This document shows positions 2,270-33,643 of a DNA stretch of 64,000 nucleotides, in pieces. The position numbers and the translations under genes were made by a program. Source of the stretch: Agrocybe praecox (Eukaryota; Basidiomycota; Agaricomycetes; Agaricales; Agrocybaceae); assembly GCA_964017145.1 (NCBI GenBank), contig OZ024849.1:3472001-3536000 (forward strand), in the 5' to 3' direction. A model generated the notes under the pieces. That model was not told the origin of the DNA, searched no databases, and saw only the letters and a list, made by a program, of their open reading frames with translations. Within the stretch, counting starts at the first letter, position 1. The number at the start of each line of letters is the position of its first letter.

Positions 2270-3010
2270 TTGATTCAGGGTAAATTAGAGCATAGACATG
2301 TCAAGAAGTTCTACATGCGGACTAATAAAGATCAAACATTTGAGCTTCAGCTGTCCAAGCCTGAAAGACATAAAAGAGCTTTATGTCTTATAACTAAACA
2401 TGTTGAAAAGACCACAAATCCCATCTCTGGCAGACCAGCGATACCTTTCGAGGAATCAGATGTGTTGCCACATGTTGCACCGCATGTCCATCACCATACC
2501 TCAAATACCTAACACCATCATATAATTTTTTTTTGAATGGCTTCATGCCAATAATGATAATTGAGCACTCAAGGTATGTTAATAAATATTTTAGATGATA
2601 ATAGATTATAAAAGACTTACAAATTTCAGGATTTTGTTCTGAGGCTGAAAGACCACCTCATATGGTGCCAACATGAAAAAGATATTCACCTGTATTTACT
2701 GAAAGAGATGGTCTTTGGAATATTCCAGTTAGCTCAGGAGGTCCTAACTACACTCTATAATCTCAAAAAAAAGTGATATATGACAACTGTTCTGAGTTGA
2801 AGGGAAAGTACAAGTTAATGTAGACAGTAATATTAACAACTCTGACTATGCGATGATGGATTTGGTAACATAATTGAAGTGGTAATGCAATTCTAGATTG
2901 GACAGTGTTATATAGAAATCTGTGACAGAAAGTTGAACTTCTGTGAGATGGAATCTTGTTAGCTTTAATTGAGACTAAAGGTTATGTACTTGGATTGAGA
3001 AAACAGACTT
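2270..3010 (+). pseudogene. Relic of a DDE transposase C-terminus
   Basis: The frame at 2270-2512 reads LEHRHVKKFYMRTNK and then an HKRA stretch. This resembles the GELEHRRVKRFYARTNK signature near the C-terminus of Agaricomycete Plavaka-like transposase proteins, as I recall it. After a gap (probably an old intron plus damage) a second piece near 2630-2780 reads FVLRLKDHL and a hydrophobic tail, again in the expected order. There is no upstream catalytic region and the frame is not continuous, so this is a decayed fragment. The family name is recognition from memory; it could belong to another fungal DDE family with the same tail. Confidence 0.45.
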
Positions 3011-3574
3011 CTTGCTTAAGTAATAAAAATGAACAACAGTGTTTCAGGTAGTATATACTGTATACTCCAAGCTTGTATTCTATACAACTTGAAGATATAA
3101 GCAGAAGTACACAGACACAGAGTCTAGTGTTTAAGTTAGTAATAAAATCAGAAGAGAAAAAAAATAAGATGTTTCTCTCTTTGTTCCAAATTTTGGTGCT
3201 CTTTTATACTTTTCTTGAGCACAGCCCAATTTTTTCCATGACTTGGAAACAAGTAGAATGCAGGAGCTACATACCCTTTTTAAGCAATCACTATACAGAA
3301 CTGCTGTGTGCTACTATAACAATGGTATGATGGTTCACAAGGTTACACAGGGCTGTGTGTATGGTTACAAAAAGTGCTCAAAGCTGTGCATAACTTCTAT
3401 CATTTCTGGCTGATATCCAAATATGGAAGTTATTTCCCAATTGGAATATTTTCGCTTTTTTACTATGTTTCAAAGAGATTGAATCCATTATTCTTTCTAT
3501 ATCAGATACTTATAGACCCTTCAGATGGTATAAGAGCCTTATAAAGAAGTTTTAAGGCATAAAAGTACAGAAAA

Positions 3575-3965
3575 GGTTCGCTTTTTTGATGAGTTTATAA
3601 ATAGGTCAGATTATTTTGAACATTATCCAAGTACAGATTCTTGCATCCATCCCATAACTGATACTTTTGGGCCTTTTTTGTGTCTTATAAATTATGATAA
3701 ATCTATTAGAATCTATATCAGCTGTTTATTTGGTAAAAAAAGCGCCCAGAATGTAATAAATCACAGACTTGGTTCGCTTTTTGGACTCATTTATAAATAG
3801 GTCATATTATTTTTGAACATTATCCAGATGCACTTTTGTGCATCCACCCTTTCCCTTTGTATTTATGCATTTTTAATGGTCTTATAATTCATTATAAATC
3901 ACTAGGACCTATATCCACCTTTTTTCTTGGCAAAAAAGCACCCACAACACAAGAAATCAGACATT
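3575..3965. repeat. Two-copy degenerate tandem repeat, ~195-bp unit
   Basis: Two adjacent diverged units begin with GGTTCGCTTTTT (about 3579 and 3771). Both continue with TTTATAAATAGGTCA, GAACATTATCCA, a TGCATCCA block and an AAAAAAGC(G/A)CCCA block. No coding potential is seen. Confidence 0.7.
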
Positions 3966-4004
3966 GTAACCTTTTAGGAAATTAATCATGTGACATATTC
4001 CACA

Positions 4005-4290
4005 GCCACACATTTGATAAGATATGATAAGATAATTCATTAGCATAGCCACAATCAAGATAAGATATTTAATAACATAGCCACAAGTTAGATAAGATAT
4101 TAAAAACATAGCATAGCCACACATCAGATTAGATATGGTTACATTGTCACACTTTTTCTAAAAATGTTTTTAAAATATGTGAAAATGTTTTAAAAGATAT
4201 GAAAATGTTTTGAAATGTAAAACATTTTTGAAAGGCAGAAATGTTTTGAAAGAAATGTTTTGACAAGAATGTTTCTACAAAACATTCTTG
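4005..4290. repeat. GATAAGATA / ATAGCCACA and AAATGTTTT simple repeats
   Basis: About five GATAAGATA-like words alternate with CATAGCCACA between 4005 and 4145. An AT-rich run of AAAATGTTTT words follows to about 4290. GATAAG is also the GATA-factor core, but with no gene nearby this looks like ordinary low-complexity DNA. Confidence 0.55.
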
Positions 4291-4839
4291 TAGGACCTTT
4301 CGGGTCTATTATGCAACATTGATTAATTAACCTAAGAGACTAAATTACTGGTTCACTGAAGTGTGACGATAACTTTCTTGTATTTTGAGTAGGCAGATAC
4401 AATGGTTTTTATACTAGTAAGGTAAATAAAAGAAGTAAAATTGAACCATATAAAAGGTAGAGATAGAAGCTAACAAAATAAATGACAAGTCCAAAGAAGT
4501 ATCGTAAAATGTTGAGAAAAGGGGTCCAAAATGCATAAAACAATGAAATAGAGACATATGAGCACATGTAATTTGTTTATTGACGTTTGTAACCCTGAAA
4601 TAAGTGTCTCAAATGGAATAGCAAGGTATACAAAGTTCCATAAAGAGTTTGGGATTGAATAAGCGACATTCGAGCGACCGGCAAACATGAGAGGTCACGT
4701 GGTGCTTTCTGAGCTCAAAGACCGACATATTAATGATCGAGAATGGTTCATTATTGTTTTAGCCAGGTTAACAAACACTATTTGCAGGGTACCGAACATG
4801 TTAGATCCCTATACAAATGAGCAAGCAACACTCAAGAGT

Positions 4840-5329
4840 GGACCAGTTGAGTGATGATGTAATTTGGGCATCTGAGCCTCGCAAGTCGTTCAGTGGAGTT
4901 GTTACTCTTCCGGTGCATGTCAAATACATTCATTAGTGATCGTAGAGTGCCTCCAAATGTTCTTGAACTTCCTGGACCTCTACAAAGTCATCCGAGCGGT
5001 ACTGAACTCATTTGAGCCTGTAGGGTCGTCTGGATCCTCGAGTCTTGTTCAATGGAGTCATTACTTGTTCGGTGGATGTGAAATATGTTTATTAATGTTG
5101 TATGAGTGTCCTAGATTGCTCTGTAAGAATGTCGAACCAAGGGGAGTGCATTGTGGATAGATACAAGATGCTCAAGGTTGTGTAGCTCATGTAATGACGT
5201 CACTTTGGGTCCCAGGGCCTCGAGAGTCGTTCAGTGGTGTTAGTACTCGTTCAAAGTGCATGAAATATGTTCGTTGAGGTTCGTTGGATGTTTCTGAATG
5301 TTCCCTGGTATTTTGTGAGCTTCCTGTCA
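4840..5329. repeat. Degenerate tandem repeat around the LTR element insertion site
   Basis: Three diverged units share GATGACGTCA-like, GAGCCTCG(A)GAGTCGTTCAGTGG and GAAATATGTTCATT-like words, at about 4850-4990, 5010-5125 and 5195-5315. The Ty3 element inserted at the end of the third unit, and the interrupted context resumes at 11741. Confidence 0.55.
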
Positions 5330-5334
5330 GGGTT

Positions 5335-5790
5335 TCTCTATTTTTCTCTATTTTTCTTTATTTATTTCACATTTTTCCCTTTGATAGATGTGTAGATATT
5401 TTATCTGTTTCATATCTTTGATTATCTCTTGATTATTTCTTTTGATTAGATACTTATCACTTTAATTTCCCATGAGCATAGCCTCATCCATTCTACATCA
5501 TTTCACATCATTCTTTTACTTTCTTTATGATGTCATTGCCTTATTCATCATTCCTTTCTATGATGTCATGGAGGAATATTCTAGAATAGTTGTAGGGTAT
5601 ATATACTGGACATGTATGTAGCTGTAGCCCCAGCTTCAATCTCTTAGGATATCCACTATGATTGGTGTGATCTCTTAGAACCATTGAGTGTCTCTCTCTT
5701 CATCTCTCTTTCTCTCTTTCTTTTTCTCTCTCTCTCTTGCTTTGTCTTTGTTGGTGGCCTTGTCACACTGATTTTAGTGTTGCCCTGACA
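5335..5790 (+). repeat. 5' LTR (456 bp)
   Basis: Terminal 8-bp inverted words are TGTCAGGG and CCCTGACA. A TATATA box lies near 5598 (GGGTATATATACTGG), and a CT microsatellite at about 5690-5740 differs in length from that of the 3' LTR. The transcript probably starts downstream of the TATA box. Confidence 0.93.
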
Positions 5791-11735: not shown

Positions 11736-12007
11736 CTTCCCCGAAGTCATCTGAACAATGGGACTCGGTCCGACGCTATTCATAGCTCAAAAATGAATTT
11801 TCAGAGCCTAGAAAGGCTTGGGGCACATCAGCGTGTAAGTTATAAGTGCAGAGATTGAAAAGCTTCTCGAGCTTTCCTGGATTCTCTGTTGTTTTTTTCC
11901 CTTTCTTGATTTTGTTTGTCTTTTGTCCTTTCTTTGCAACATTTGCCTTTTGCTGCATATGTGCAGCTTCCTCATTTGGAAGTTCCTTTGTCACGTAAAA
12001 GGGAAAT

Positions 12008-12038
12008 TATGGCAACAGGGACCCGCCAGCTTCGAAAT
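12008..12038 (+). repeat. Terminal inverted repeat, left end
   Basis: 31 bp, perfect inverse of 17838-17868. The last two bases of the match are followed by two mismatches and then AACTT shared by both ends. Flanked on the outside by GGAAAT. Confidence 0.9.
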
Positions 12039-12680
12039 CCAACTTGTTTGGCTTATAGCCGAACTTCGGCTTTCGATAATTTACATTTTATTTTGCATAC
12101 CTAAAATTACAAATCAACTTCGTGTACGCCCGGGTAAGTTTCCGATGTCTGTTCTTGCCATCTCCAATTCTCTCACCTTGACTTCTGACTTCTGCTTTCT
12201 GTTGTCGCTCGGCTAGACTGAGTTGGCCTGTTCTCTCCCCGTGGGCCGTGAACACCATCAACCAGCTGCTAGCAGTGCCCTTATCCACATGATTGACATG
12301 GTCTGATGATGATGGTCTTATGCCGAGCTGTACAACACTGATAGGCAAGGGTTAGTAAGTGATCCACTGAGCAGTTGTATCCAGGAGGTAAGTGGTACAC
12401 CAGAGCTTGGGAAATCTCTGCCCATCTACTCAAGTCTCTCTCTCTGATAGGTATGCTTGGATTTCTGAGGTCCAGCTGAGGTCACCATTCGGAGAAGTTT
12501 GGTACTAGTTTGTGAGTTTTCTCTTTATGTTGTGCTGCGCATATATCTTAAACCATTGCTTAGACCTATCGCTACAACATGGTTGCCCAAGAAAACATGT
12601 TATATCATTTGTTTTTTACGAGTATATGTACACCCTACTACTTGAACACGACATCTTTGCTTTTCTGTCTGGTTAGTGGA

Positions 12681-15515
12681 TCAATCATGATGGGATTGTG
12701 CTTGGGACCCCATTGGGTTCCTCTGAACGGAACGGCTCTGGCTGGGAAGGAATAAAGGTATCTTGGCATTATCCTCGGTGGTTGGCTGGCTCCGGTCTCT
12801 CCCAGATCTTGTGTCACTTGGGTTATAAGGAATGTCGGATTGTTCGCACTCATCATATTCGGTGGGTAAATCAAAGTATTGACAGTATTTGTTGCATTTG
12901 TGATCCTTTTCAAAGTTATCGAAGCCTTTGATTAGGTTTCCTCCTGCAAAAATGGGGCCGAGGTTACTGTATTTCACTTGTGAGCGACTCCTGTGCTGTA
13001 TTGTCATTATGATTTAATAACATACATGTCTGTCAGAATTTGGGGATCCGTAAGGAGATCTTTGTTTCCTGTATCAGTGGTGACCAGATCCATAAGCTCC
13101 TACTATTCGAGGTCGTCAAAGTCTGAGCTTACCTTGCAAATCAGAAAAAAAGACCTTTTTGTCTGATTTGTAGTACTGTAAATGTTGCGCGAATGCGAGG
13201 AATTCTGCACGATCCTGAGCTTCTGCGTCCGAAGAACGGATAGGTACTGCTGATGTATTGTTTAGGTATTTGCGAAATGGACCGCCTGGACCATTAGTTG
13301 GAATGAGTTCTTCGAGGAGGTAGTACTTGAGGTTGTTTGGATCGTTTCCCACGCGCTCGATGGCCAGCGCGATGTCGACAAAACGCATACGAGGCAAGAT
13401 AATTTCATTTTTTTCGTCAGCAGGTTTTTTCTGCACGATGCGGTTAATGTGCGTGTACACCATTTCGAGAAGTGCTCCCGCCCAAACAATACATCCAGCT
13501 TCCCCGACCAAAACCTGCATTTGTTTTGTCCCTTCGTAAGCAATATCCTGCATTGCTCTGGATTTTTGATCAAGCTGATTAACACTTGTGATGTCCTTGA
13601 CCTTCGTATAGAATGCCTGTTTTGCAACAATATTGCGCGTGTCCCCAAATATCACTTCACTTGCAGTGCCGAAATATGCGACTTTAAATCCACCTTTCTT
13701 CATTTGTCCCGTATTCAGGTATAGGTCAATCTCCTGTGGTTCGTCAAAGTTGAGTTGGCTTTTCCAATCATGATTGTGCAACAATTCGTTGAATGATAGT
13801 TTTTTTAGCTTGAAAACTCTTGCGTGAATCAATTTTGAATTAACTAGAGAAAGCGCAGTTAGGTATGTATCATACACATTTCAATTAAATTAACATTCAT
13901 TACTCACACATTCTGTTAATCTCGCGGTGTGTAGGTTGTTTCTGTGCTCGAAGAGCCTCAAGAAGCATCCCTTGGTTTTGGGAAATGCTAATGGTTGGTA
14001 CCGTTTCATTTATGCCTGTCAGCTCTGATGAAAGCCGAACACGTTTTGAGGCTGGCTCTGTCCCCTCAATCATGTCGTTGGGCTAATGATTATTGAGTTA
14101 TTAATTAATGTGAATGATACATTGCGATATAGATTACCTGTGCTCGAGCGCACGGAACAGAAACATTTCTAGATTTTGAATGGTTAGATATCATCTGAGC
14201 CTGACCTCCACTGGGCGCATTGTTTTGTTTTTGGATCTGTTAATGCAGATAGTGAAAGGTTAGAAAAGAAACTCTTCTTCTGTAAAATTGATACAATACC
14301 ATATCCATGACAGGCTTGTGACCTTCGTAAATCCTAGTATTGCTTCTATGCTCATCCTCCGCTGCTTGATCTTGGGCGACTCTCCAATCAATATATCTTT
14401 CAAAGATGGAATTAGGGATATGAAAATGCACGATTGCGCGTCCGCCTTTGAAAACTGGTAACACTGTATTTTTTCCTTCTTTCCAGAATTTCGGTGTATT
14501 AATGGCATCTATATCAGGTGTCTTTGGGTGAATTTCTGCCCAGTCTTTAGTTCTCATCACAATATTATCCATCGGGAGCAGGTAACCGTTTGAAAAGGTA
14601 TTCCATGCAGGTAGAATATGTTTATATAGAGATGATTTCAATGCATCAGCACCTATGCGTACGGGAATGTTGTCCACAGCCTGCAGGACATCCTGCAAGA
14701 TTTCGTAAAAGGTAAGTTTTAGAATTTATAAAATCAGAATCAATTTGTACCCCAATTAATATAGGCCTCGTTTTTCCAAAGGGCATTTGTACCATTCGTA
14801 CTTCAACAACAATGACCGGTTCGGTACTTTGTGAGTATGCTTGACTTGCAATTTTTGCCCGAACAGATGGGTATTGAAGATAATTGGATGTATATCCCGG
14901 TGCGCTTGGAATAGAAACTTGCATTTGCTTGTAAACGGGGGAGATTTGCTGGACTTGATGGTTGATTCCTGGTAATTGCACGGCTACACCTTGGTTTGGA
15001 AGTCCTGATGTACTATAGGACGATAGAAATGTATTTCCAGTGGAACTTCCAGTTAACCTTGACGTTCCTTCGAGTACTTGGACTCCAACTTGTTGGATTG
15101 GAAAGGACGATACTATCAAAGTCTCTATGTTAGATCATCTATGCTTGGTACATACATTACTGTTAAAATTGAAGTAAATCACCTCCTCTTTGTGCACGGA
15201 CAACCTGCTGCTGGATAGCATTTGGGTTTTGAGAAGGGGCTGCTGTTCCCAACATACTTATAGTTAGTATAAAATACCGAGCAACACCCGTTAGATATGC
15301 AATTTACCTATATTATCAATCCGACGTGTACTTTTTTTCGACTTGTAGTAGTTATAACAGCCCGGGCAAAGTGCTCGAGTACTTTTTCCTTGCCTGTTGT
15401 CGTGCATATACTCTAATTTGGTACCAGGAGGATAAACCTTCTGGCATGTGTCTCGTTCGCTTTCACATATGGCATTCTTGTTGATATCCTTTGGGGTAAA
15501 GTCTGCGGAGTACAT
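12681..15515 (-). CDS. α-kinase domain protein inside a transposon
   Basis: An atypical (α-type) Ser/Thr kinase spread over about eight exons. The probable start is the ATG at 15515. The N-terminus has a cysteine cluster (C-x6-C, later C-P-G-C) that may bind zinc, then a Gln/Ser-rich linker (15140-14750), then the kinase. α-kinase residues I can see: glycine-rich KKGGFKVAYFG, the lysine in NIVAKQAF, YLLEELIP, FAQHLQYYKS, the catalytic SDLQG (about 13131-13145), LLTDPQILTD in a small exon near 13030-13080, and the zinc-binding tail KDHKCNKYCQYFDLP (H-x-C-x3-C). All key positions of the TRPM7/MHCK fold are present, so the kinase is probably active. Introns cluster between 15300 and 13000; the exact N-terminal exons are uncertain. 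It follows the transposase on the same strand with about 130 bp between them, inside the same TIRs. Substrate unknown. Confidence 0.82.
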
Positions 15516-15647
15516 GGCATCAGGCAAGGTCAAAGTCAGATTCAAGGAAAGAAAAATAGTTTTTGTACTCTAGGGCTAATATTTACGCTTGATCCGCACT
15601 CAAATTTGATTTTAACGTAAGCAAAGTATTTTTATACACTGTAGGCC

Positions 15648-17502
15648 CTACCCATCATCGTCCTCTTCACAGTCGGTAAAATCAGCAAATTCCCGCAAAT
15701 CCTCTTCAACTTCTTCACATTCATCTTCAGTGCTGATTGCAATGCCAGAAGAGCTACCAGCTGATGGTGGATTGGTTAGTCCCCCGTAGTAGAGGTACCC
15801 TAGTTCGCCGACTCCATTATCTCTGTAACGAAGGTCTTGAAGGTTTTCTGTAAGTGGAATGCGTTCTTCTAGGCCATTGTCAGCCATTTGAATAGCTTGT
15901 GAAACGCATGGATCCTCTGGAAGACTTTGAAATAGAGACAACATTGAGTCATAAATATCCCAAAATGTCCTTGAAGAGACGGGAGGGCGCCCAATAGATG
16001 TGTATAACCTATTCACTTGCTCGTCAAATTCCTGCGGTACTAGTTGAAATATTGGGAGATGGCTCGGGGACCATCTATCTTCCATTTCGTCAAATAAAGG
16101 AGTGGGAACCTCAATCTGTAAATAACCCAAATTTATTAGACCTGTTACTATCGAAATTACTATGACAAATATTTACCTTGAAGTCCTTTGAGTGAAATAA
16201 ATGTGGCTTTGCATTGATCAGATCGGGGATTCCTTGAGGTAGTATCTTATGTTTATCAGCCCTTCGTGGACTAGTATTGAATTGATTGACCCATGTATCG
16301 AGTTCAGCCTGTAGCCATGGAATAGCAAGCCATCGAAAGAGTAACCTAAATATGGTTAATTATTTACCTCACTATTAGAGTGTAACTGAATTACCTTTCG
16401 ACGGGGTTGTTTGGATCATACAAGCCTGTGTTAAGGCCATGGTCAAGAATAGTTTCAAATCCAGGCGTAAAGTTGCGACGAAACCCAGACCAAGCAATTT
16501 CAGGTTTAATATTGCTCTTATTAAAGCACCAGCGATGTTGCAACGTTTCTTGTAGAGAAGGATCAAGTTTATGACGGATAGCAGTATGCGCATTTGCTAC
16601 TGCATACATTTCCCAGCCACGATCACTTTGAGTAACAAGTGGTACACCTACAAAACCAACAACATCAGTCTTTGTGTTTAAGCGCCGAGACTATACATAC
16701 CCTTATTCTTACGCCCTGCTTCGATATAATACTTTGAAATCAACCGTGGGTTACGGTTCGACCACCATACTTTTAACCACACAATACGGCCGCAGTATGG
16801 ATCAAGTCCAATATGCAACCATAGTCCAAACTGCTTCCATTTGTCATGCTGGTCGCATGTCCAAATGTCCATAACACCGGCAGCCCAAAAGCGTTTGCGT
16901 TTAAAGCTTTTGCGCTTTCGAAACGCCACAGCATCTGGCTCTGTAAGTGTGAGATATGCCGCTACTGTTTTTCTTTCCTTGTATTTGAGTTTGAGATAGG
17001 TTAATCACAAGGCAAACACTTACTCTGATACTTTGAGAAGATACTCCTGCCGTAGATGGGTTACCAAACCGCGTGCACCCTTGTTCGGAAATCGTTCCTT
17101 GACTTCATCAACAAACGGAGAAATGCTTGCGAAAGTTTGTTTCTGCTGGCGTGTATTCAATAAACCCCACAGCTTTCGACGTCTCTCAAGAGAACGAAGG
17201 CTGTTCAATGAAGGAGTTAACCAAAATTTGAATTGGACACGAAGTACTCGAATTAACATACCTGAGACCATAACGAGACTGGTCAAAGTGTTCAATGGCA
17301 TGCTTCACAATATCTTTATCTGAAAGACCCATTTTCCAGTAGTAGAGAACGACAGGGTATAGATCACGGTCAGGTGCTATAGAATTATGAATGTTAATCC
17401 CAAATTTCTTAGAAGAAAAAGGTCAGAATCCTGCTTACGAAGTGGTTTGTGCTGATTAGAGCGCTTAGAAGCATTTGAAAACAATCCCTCGAGCTCTGAC
17501 AT
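15648..17502 (-). CDS. Integrase-like DDE transposase
   Basis: A protein of roughly 550-600 aa in several exons. The proposed start is the ATG at 17502 (MSELEGLFSN), because its first exon splices in frame into PDRDLYPVVLYYWKMGL. Next come a helix-turn-helix-like stretch (LSDKDIVKHAIEHFDQSRYGL), a second helical segment (RSLERRRKLWGLLN), and the integrase-like core: VMDIWTCDQHDKWKQFGLWL, LDPYCG, LKVWWSNRNPRLI, then TQSDRGWEMYAVANAHT, HRWCFNKSNIKPEIAWS and FTPGFE. The Asp in MDIW/DQHD, the Asp in TQSD and the Glu in KPEIAW are candidate DDE residues. The tail is acidic and ends at 15648. This is the fungal integrase-core family common in Agaricomycetes (my recognition). It presumably cuts and joins at the TATGGC termini. 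I saw no stop or frameshift in the exons I followed. Confidence 0.85.
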
Positions 17503-17837
17503 GATTCACATTCACAGTAGAACCTCTGTATGCTACGCAGAACTGGAGTCAAAAGACTAGTAAAGGGGCCATAATAAATATACAACTTGGGAACAACAGC
17601 CTGTGTAGTCAAAACCTGAAGGTCTGCATTTACCTGGTTTCACATACAAAGATTGGTATTACGACTTGAAGAAAAGATGTTTATAATGGTGGATGATACA
17701 ACACTGATATCGAGGTGTCGAAGGCAAATTGGAAAGCTGGGTGACGCGGCCAAAATCTGCTGACAAATATTTTGATGTTACATTAGCAGCCGAGAATTAT
17801 AAATATCCGGCATGAACAAACACACCTGCTAAGTTAA

Positions 17838-17868
17838 ATTTCGAAGCTGGCGGGTCCCTGTTGCCATA
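17838..17868 (-). repeat. Terminal inverted repeat, right end
   Basis: 31 bp, perfect inverse of 12008-12038, followed outside by the duplicated GGAAAT. Confidence 0.9.
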
Positions 17869-17874
17869 GGAAAT

Positions 17875-32701: not shown

Positions 32702-32967
32702 TATGGCGGTCATTTGGGGTAAAAATTCCCCGCGCGATTTTTACCTTTTCTGCGCAATTTTAGGCCATTTTGAAGCCTTATATCATCTAAGTACAATTAT
32801 TTTCTCTTATGTGCGCGGGGAAAAAGTTGCGCGCGTTTTTTGGTTGGCGCGCAATTATTTTTTTTTGGCACAAGTGAGGCGCGCGCACATGTCAAACTCC
32901 GCGCGCACAATTTTCTTTCACCCCAGCGCGCAATATTGTTGGCTTCCAGGTGCGCGCAATTTTGACC
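32702..32967 (+). repeat. Left inverted arm of the foldback element
   Basis: About 266 bp, ending ...GCGCGCAATTTTGACCC, inverted at 33378-33643. It could form a very long hairpin if transcribed. Confidence 0.88.
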
Positions 32968-33377
32968 CCGTATATTAGCACGCGCACATACAGGAGTTTG
33001 TATGTGAATTGTTTAACAGCCAAATATTAGCAAAGATCCAACCATTAGACCGAAGGTACTGACTCCGTATAGTGAAACAAAACGAGTGTATTTATTGACA
33101 TATATGTTATTTACGTAGTCCGGAACTTGGAAGTACTAATTAAAGTAGTTAGAAAGGCAAGTATGTAGTTATATGAATGGCTAAAGTAATTAGTGGTCAC
33201 TGGCGGACCCAAATATTTACAAGATTCACTATTACAAATAATATAAGTGACTGATTGCGAACGGAAAGCAAAGCAAAATGAGAGTAACGAGCGCAGGAAA
33301 ATGACCAAAAAATAATGAGACGAGTACGAGTAAGACGAGCTGGTTCACGCGCAAGGGTTAAAACGAGGGGGAGGTGT

Positions 33378-33643
33378 GGGTCAAAATTGCGCGCACCTGG
33401 AAGCCAACAATATTGCGCGCTGGGGTGAAAGAAAATTGCGCGCGCGGAGTTTGGAATGTGCGCGTGGCTCATTTGCGCTAAAAAAAATAATTGCGCGCCA
33501 ACCAAAAAACGCGCGCAACTTTTTCCCCGCGCACATAAGAGAAAATAATTTGACTTAGATGATATAAGGCTTCAAAATGGCCTAAAATCGCGCAGAAAAG
33601 GTAAAAATCGCGCGGGGAATTCTTACCCCAAATGACCGCCATA
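33378..33643 (-). repeat. Right inverted arm of the foldback element
   Basis: Reverse complement of the left arm with scattered substitutions and no large indels. Confidence 0.88.

What the first reader, a model, noticed from the sequence alone, without database searches (positions are those of the whole stretch)
12008..17868. A TIR transposon that carries an apparently active α-kinase
Seen: perfect 31-bp inverted ends and a 6-bp target duplication (GGAAAT) enclose exactly two same-strand genes, an integrase-like transposase and an α-kinase with all hallmark residues (VAK, LEE, QH, DLQG, H-x-C-x3-C). Known: α-kinases are a small atypical kinase family, amplified in some Agaricomycetes. Inference: this kinase may be a transposon component, either captured cargo or a regulator of transposition or host chromatin, and mobility could explain amplification of such kinases.
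Basis: partly seen in the sequence, partly recalled or inferred. Interest (0 to 1): 0.9.

Follow-up and report, generated by a model that had tools for sequence, protein, structure and literature searches.

The report
Fungal jumping gene with an alpha-kinase
This is an apparently intact fungal cut-and-paste transposon whose second gene is an unusual protein kinase; in several other mushrooms related copies of the same two genes sit together, so the kinase looks like part of the transposon's own equipment, which could help explain why some fungi have many such kinases.

Summary
Window 12008-17868 (5861 bp) has perfect 31-bp inverted ends, a GGAAAT duplication and two minus-strand genes: a 505-aa DDE transposase and a ~782-aa alpha-kinase, both open through plausible introns. 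Ends, TIR length and 6-bp duplication match published fungal IS3EU transposons. Alpha-kinase genes in TET-bearing IS3EU families are already mentioned in Kojima 2025 (PMC12730594), so the principle is not new. Added here: the pair occurs without TET, on one strand, 132 bp apart. In the same genome 6 of 14 alpha-kinase loci lie inside TIR elements with 6-bp duplications (one matches 5 of 6), with at least four different end sequences; four of the six also hold transposase sequence. Of 21 kinase homologues elsewhere, 10 are fused to, next to, or apparently on the contig of a related transposase. The kinase keeps its hallmark residues and has an N-terminal cysteine module and a predicted ubiquitin-like region. 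Most likely it is an accessory gene serving the transposon; its substrate is unknown. Against: co-divergence with the transposase is not significant once close relatives are dropped, two transposase loci have no kinase, and eight kinase loci were not shown to be in TIR elements.

The parts
12002..12007 (.). target site duplication GGAAAT, left copy
12008..12038 (+). left terminal inverted repeat, 31 bp perfect (TATGGC...)
12681..15515 (-). alpha-kinase gene, 9 exons, about 782 aa: N-terminal cysteine module, Q-rich linker, region whose homologue is predicted ubiquitin-like, alpha-kinase domain
   Evidence: gene model; PF02816; homologue alignment; fold of homologue P0126
12681..13880 (-). stretch that encodes the alpha-kinase catalytic domain (VAK, LEE, QH, DLQG, LTDPQI, HxCx3C)
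15516..15647 (.). 132-bp gap between transposase stop and kinase start, same strand
   Evidence: computed from the models
15648..17502 (-). IS3EU-like DDE transposase gene, 7 exons, 505 aa, acidic C-terminal tail with ADFTD
   Evidence: gene model; PF24764; homologues; fold of homologue P0005
17838..17868 (-). right terminal inverted repeat, 31 bp perfect
17869..17874 (.). target site duplication GGAAAT, right copy

Best explanation
Shown: TIRs, a 6-bp target duplication, an open DDE transposase and an open alpha-kinase. Inferred: the transposase cuts at the TATGGC ends, inserts with a 6-bp stagger and can move the short TIR-only copies in trans. The kinase is an accessory gene of the transposon, encoded 132 bp downstream of the transposase. 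It acts for the element, most likely by phosphorylating the transposase or a host chromatin or silencing factor so as to permit or tune transposition. That last step is inference without a known substrate; I give it about 0.4 as against other services to the element.
For: Ends and duplication. Five two-ended short copies with the same TIR and five different 6-bp duplications show past mobility of these ends. Transposase sequence and kinase inside one TIR element also at C4:540961-550150, C10:3611122-3617974, TSD CTGCTG and C4:662176-666415, TSD CTCAAG. Kinase in TIR elements without an evident full transposase gene: C3:3122902-3127484, TSD ACGCAC and C6:2120846-2124244, TSD TGGGTA. Other species: fused gene models P0121, P0122, P0124, P0131; adjacent locus tags P0055/P0127 and P0070/P0140; same species and equal contig length P0005/P0130, P0057/P0128 and P0134, P0114/P0137. 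Hallmark residues invariant in the 14 kinases aligned (14 of 22 at hand), some only 22% identical to the window's. Foldseek: IstA, TnsB, MuA for a transposase homologue, alpha-kinases for a kinase homologue. IS3EU hallmarks and kinase gene in print.
Against: Not universal: two transposase loci (L039, L040) have no kinase in the 9.9 kb read, and none of the 38 PF24764 hits lies within 10 kb of any of the 14 kinase loci by coordinates; that search missed the window's own transposase, so it is a weak test either way. Eight of 14 kinase loci were not shown to be in a TIR element, four of them seen only in about 3 kb. Transposase and kinase distances correlate at r 0.69, p 5e-4 for 10 pairs, but r 0.30, p 0.20 when close relatives are dropped. 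Another repeat without a 6-bp duplication also carries an alpha-kinase. Gene order differs between elements. No expression or activity data.
Confidence: 0.7

Rival explanations
1. The kinase is passenger cargo captured from hosts, perhaps repeatedly, with no role for the transposon.
For: Some transposase loci have no kinase; PF24764 hits are not near kinase loci. Gene order differs: same strand in the window and C10, opposite in C4. Other repeats carry alpha-kinases too.
Against: A particular multidomain kinase, with middle domain and often the N-terminal cysteine module, goes with related transposases in several genera. Hallmark residues are kept in the 14 aligned.
Confidence: 0.17
2. The kinase serves the host, or is a selfish maintenance device (for example damage on loss), and does not act in transposition.
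For: Not excluded. The alpha-kinase family is reported as highly expanded in rusts (PMC4469406, passage).
Against: No partner or antidote gene was seen. A degenerate copy persists, and five of six two-ended copies of the same ends lack the kinase.
Confidence: 0.08
3. The association is accidental: a transposon landed around a resident kinase, or the TIRs belong to a nested element.
For: Only one full-length copy with these exact ends was found in this genome.
Against: Co-occurrence in three further TIR elements of this genome and in gene models of other genera. One clean 6-bp duplication at the site.
Confidence: 0.03

Closest known systems
TET/JBP-bearing IS3EU transposons with an alpha-kinase gene, rust fungi and Tuber (Kojima 2025, PMC12730594; abstract, passages and part 1 of 2 of the Discussion seen)
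   Same: 6-bp duplication, TIR over 30 bp, ends TAYGG..CCRTA, transposase and alpha-kinase genes in one element.
   Different: No TET/JBP gene found in the window element; kinase downstream on the same strand, whereas the paper gives opposite orientations for TET-bearing families; host looks agaricomycete.
IS3EU/GingerRoot superfamily in general (PMC10045372, passages seen)
   Same: TA..TA ends, usually 6-bp duplications.
   Different: The word kinase does not occur in that paper's main text.
Cellular alpha-kinases (myosin heavy chain kinase A, eEF2K, TRPM7, ALPK1)
   Same: Catalytic fold and hallmark residues.
   Different: N-terminal cysteine module and predicted ubiquitin-like region before the kinase domain; carried by a transposon.
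Kyakuja and Zisupton transposons with TET/JBP dioxygenases in mushrooms (PMC12730594)
   Same: Fungal DNA transposons with an extra enzyme gene that, as the author speculates, helps the element escape silencing.
   Different: Other transposase superfamily and a different enzyme.

Membership tests
IS3EU superfamily | 6-bp target site duplication | tested here: met
   GGAAAT; also 5 of 5 two-ended short copies, read by eye
IS3EU superfamily | ends TAYGG..CCRTA and TIR longer than 30 bp (as given for the rust families in PMC12730594) | tested here: met
   TATGGC..GCCATA, 31 bp perfect, 38 bp at 95%
IS3EU superfamily | DDE (integrase-like) transposase | tested here: met
   PF24764; in 40 aligned homologues D184 (90% or more), D243 and E285 (invariant), P0005 numbering, my assignment as catalytic; Foldseek best E 8.8e-6 to IstA, then TnsB, MuA; TM-scores of those rows are low, 0.35 or less
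IS3EU superfamily | transposase falls in the IS3EU/GingerRoot clade | not testable with these tools
   no Repbase proteins at hand
TET-bearing IS3EU subgroup | TET/JBP gene between transposase and kinase | tested here: not met
   no Pfam TET match in 9 ORFs (E 0.1); only 132 bp between the genes
TET-bearing IS3EU subgroup | transposase and alpha-kinase in opposite orientations | tested here: not met
   same strand in the window; opposite in the C4 element
alpha-kinase family | PF02816 match with hallmark residues | tested here: met
   E 6.5e-19; K, EE, QH, DxQG, DPQ, GxN or GN, HxCx3C invariant in the 14 aligned
alpha-kinase family | alpha-kinase fold | tested here: met
alpha-kinase family | kinase activity | not testable with these tools
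   needs an assay

The most novel reading that the evidence does not exclude
A branch of eukaryotic DNA transposons encodes its own protein kinase as a regulator. The kinase phosphorylates the threonine or serine of the conserved A-[DE]-[FL]-[TS]-D motif in the transposase's acidic tail, and the matching A-D-F-T motif at its own N-terminus is a docking or autoregulatory copy. The alpha-kinase expansions of mushrooms and rusts are then largely transposon copies.
Probability: 0.15. Interest if true: 0.85.

Novelty: new variant of a known kind. Interest (0 to 1): 0.5.

Why it matters
The alpha-kinase family is reported as highly expanded in rusts (PMC4469406, passage); PF02816 also stands in a domain table of a wheat-rust comparison with 2.34 and 3.5e-2, whose heading I did not see (PMC5295586). 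If such kinases travel as genes of IS3EU-like transposons, family counts reflect transposon history and not signalling need, and annotations should change. A two-gene element with its own kinase would make phospho-control of transposition or silencing testable.

Tried and rejected

Papers: PMC12730594 seen as outline and abstract, passages and part 1 of 2 of the Discussion; PMC10045372, PMC4469406, PMC5295586, PMC2838846 as passages; others as listings only. Another paper on alpha-kinases in transposons was not seen in the searches, 74 of the held library; one search listed 20 of 2,041 papers and one search listed 10 of 19, and subscription journals are mostly missing.

Full report
Observation. 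The 5861-bp segment 12008-17868 begins and ends with a 31-bp perfect inverted repeat (38 bp at 95%) and is flanked by GGAAAT on both sides. In the window the pattern occurs only there; shuffle mean 0 in 100. In the whole assembly (59 Mb, 347 contigs, unnamed) the 31-bp end occurs 13 times, all with 0 mismatches (up to 3 allowed); the reversed control pattern gave none. These are six two-ended elements and one single end on C11 whose other side matches only from base 20. The five other two-ended copies are 423-2444 bp long, each with its own 6-bp duplication, and by blastn at E 1e-3 share only the terminal 110 bp or less with the window element.

Genes. Both are on the minus strand. Transposase: 17502-15648, 7 exons, 505 aa without a stop. 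Kinase: 15515-12681, 9 exons, about 782 aa, with many equivalent splice choices in the linkers. They lie 132 bp apart. Pfam: PF24764 integrase core, E 8.9e-9; PF02816 alpha-kinase, E 6.5e-19. A model of transposase homologue P0005 (pLDDT 82.4) matches IstA, TnsB and MuA first, with low TM-scores, then retroviral integrases. A model of kinase homologue P0126 (mean pLDDT 63) matches TRPM7, eEF2K, an Entamoeba alpha-kinase and MHCK-A in about residues 420-738 and, weakly, ubiquitin-like folds in about 188-305.

Same genome. Alpha-kinase loci: 13 by PF02816 plus C4:549121 found only by protein search, 14 in all. Six lie between inverted ends with 6-bp duplications: the window; C4:540961-550150 (duplication 5 of 6, 40 bases of the two ends identical, a stop inside the kinase frame, an internal inverted repeat); C3:3122902-3127484 (ACGCAC); C4:662176-666415 (CTCAAG) and C6:2120846-2124244 (TGGGTA), with aligned segments 99.5-99.8% identical; and C10:3611122-3617974 (CTGCTG). 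Transposase sequence accompanies the kinase in four of the six (window, C4:540961, C10:3611122, C4:662176); in the two TACCG elements it is only about 25-30% identical to the window's relatives. The C6 copy gave no blastx match to transposases but aligns with a stretch of the C4:662176 copy that overlaps its transposase match. The C3 element keeps an ORF that by eye resembles a transposase tail. Of the other eight loci, four (C195, C13, C12, C4:3084900) were read over 8-13 kb without a TIR plus 6-bp duplication; the other four (C3:4165965, C4:228336, C8:2525724, C6:1644811) were seen only in about 3 kb, and no paired-end search was run on them. C195 and C13 form a repeat pair with other ends and no 6-bp duplication. 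Against universality: of the four loci found with the window's transposase exon, two (L039, L040) have no kinase in the 9.9 kb read. None of the 38 PF24764 hits is within 10 kb of any kinase locus by coordinates, but that search did not list the window's own transposase, so it can miss such genes.

Other species. The transposase has 218 homologues at E 0.001, of which 120 were listed; the named ones among them are, as I recall the genera, all Agaricomycotina. The kinase has 21. Of these 21, four gene models hold transposase and kinase in one chain (P0121 Galerina, P0122 Arthromyces, P0124 Tricholoma, P0131 Amanita), two have the locus tag next to a transposase (Pleurotus P0127, P0140), and four share species and contig length with a listed transposase (P0128, P0130, P0134, P0137; distance unknown). 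That makes 10 of 21, counted by eye. For the other 11 nothing was established. The fused models put the kinase downstream on the same strand, as in the window. No TIRs could be looked for in those species. Of the 22 kinases at hand (window included) 14 were aligned; hallmark residues are invariant in these, and the cysteine module is visible by eye in about 9 of the 14. Among all 21 homologues HxCx3C was not found by pattern in P0131, P0138 and P0140; P0131 and P0140 end at or just after the DxQG or DPQI motif.

Do the two genes evolve together? Distances of transposase core and kinase core correlate: r 0.81, p 5e-5 for 9 pairs, and r 0.87, p 0.012 for 6 strictly adjacent pairs. With Amanita added and a shorter kinase segment: r 0.69, p 5e-4 (10 pairs) and r 0.84, p 0.0014 (7 strict pairs). 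With one of each close pair dropped: r 0.30, p 0.20 (8 pairs) and r 0.49, p 0.10 (5 strict pairs). So joint inheritance is supported at short range only. Kinase distances are about 1.5 times the transposase distances.

A shared motif. A[DEVQS][FLI][TS][DE] occurs in 21 of 32 transposase tails (31 of the 120 listed homologues that reach the tail, plus the window), shuffle mean 0.2. [ASTVI][DEQSI][FI]T occurs before the cysteine module in 8 of the 8 kinases (of 22) where a pattern found that module, shuffle mean 0.28; in the fused model P0121 the counted motif belongs to the transposase tail, so 7 are independent of it. The window kinase, which that pattern missed, begins MYSADFT. The patterns were written after seeing the sequences and the sequences are related. 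It is a lead for a common partner, docking site or substrate, not a proof.

Comparison with the literature. Kojima 2025 (PMC12730594) describes rust IS3EU by 6-bp duplications, TIRs over 30 bp and TAYGG..CCRTA ends, and states that all TET-bearing IS3EU families have the TET gene between transposase and alpha-kinase, these two in opposite orientations. The window element meets the IS3EU features tested but lacks TET and has both genes on one strand. The alpha-kinase expansion in rusts is stated without this link in the passage seen. Hence: a real, apparently intact element, a variant of a kind already noted in passing, with new evidence that the kinase is a recurrent and mobile transposon gene in mushrooms. 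What the kinase phosphorylates is unknown.

Noticed in passing
window 32702-33643: Another TIR element with 6-bp duplication TCTTTC and ends TATGGCGGTCATTTGGGGTA, 942 bp, with further inverted matches inside: looks like a MITE of an IS3EU-like family.
   Followed up: partly
L036 5163-9656 (C4:543162-547655): A 1135-bp perfect inverted repeat inside the C4 kinase element lies between parts of both genes.
   Followed up: partly
L056 about 2828-5479 and L057 about 3681-5759: Another kind of repeat with ends TGATACGCGGCATTCC carries alpha-kinase sequence in two copies, long segments 81-88% alike, without a 6-bp duplication.
   Followed up: partly
L058 and L060 (about C12:335496-339722 and C4:3081513-3087122): Two alpha-kinase loci in a duplication 92-95% identical, with no TIR found.
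   Followed up: partly
L040 3620-5304 and places listed: A TATGGAAACCCGGACTGTCAAGCTT end family with many short copies, pairs about 0.2-1.9 kb apart; L040 holds a transposase relic with TSD GTTTGT.
   Followed up: partly
transposase tails and kinase N-termini: A similar ADFT-type motif stands near the C-terminus of the transposase and near the N-terminus of the kinase.
   Followed up: partly
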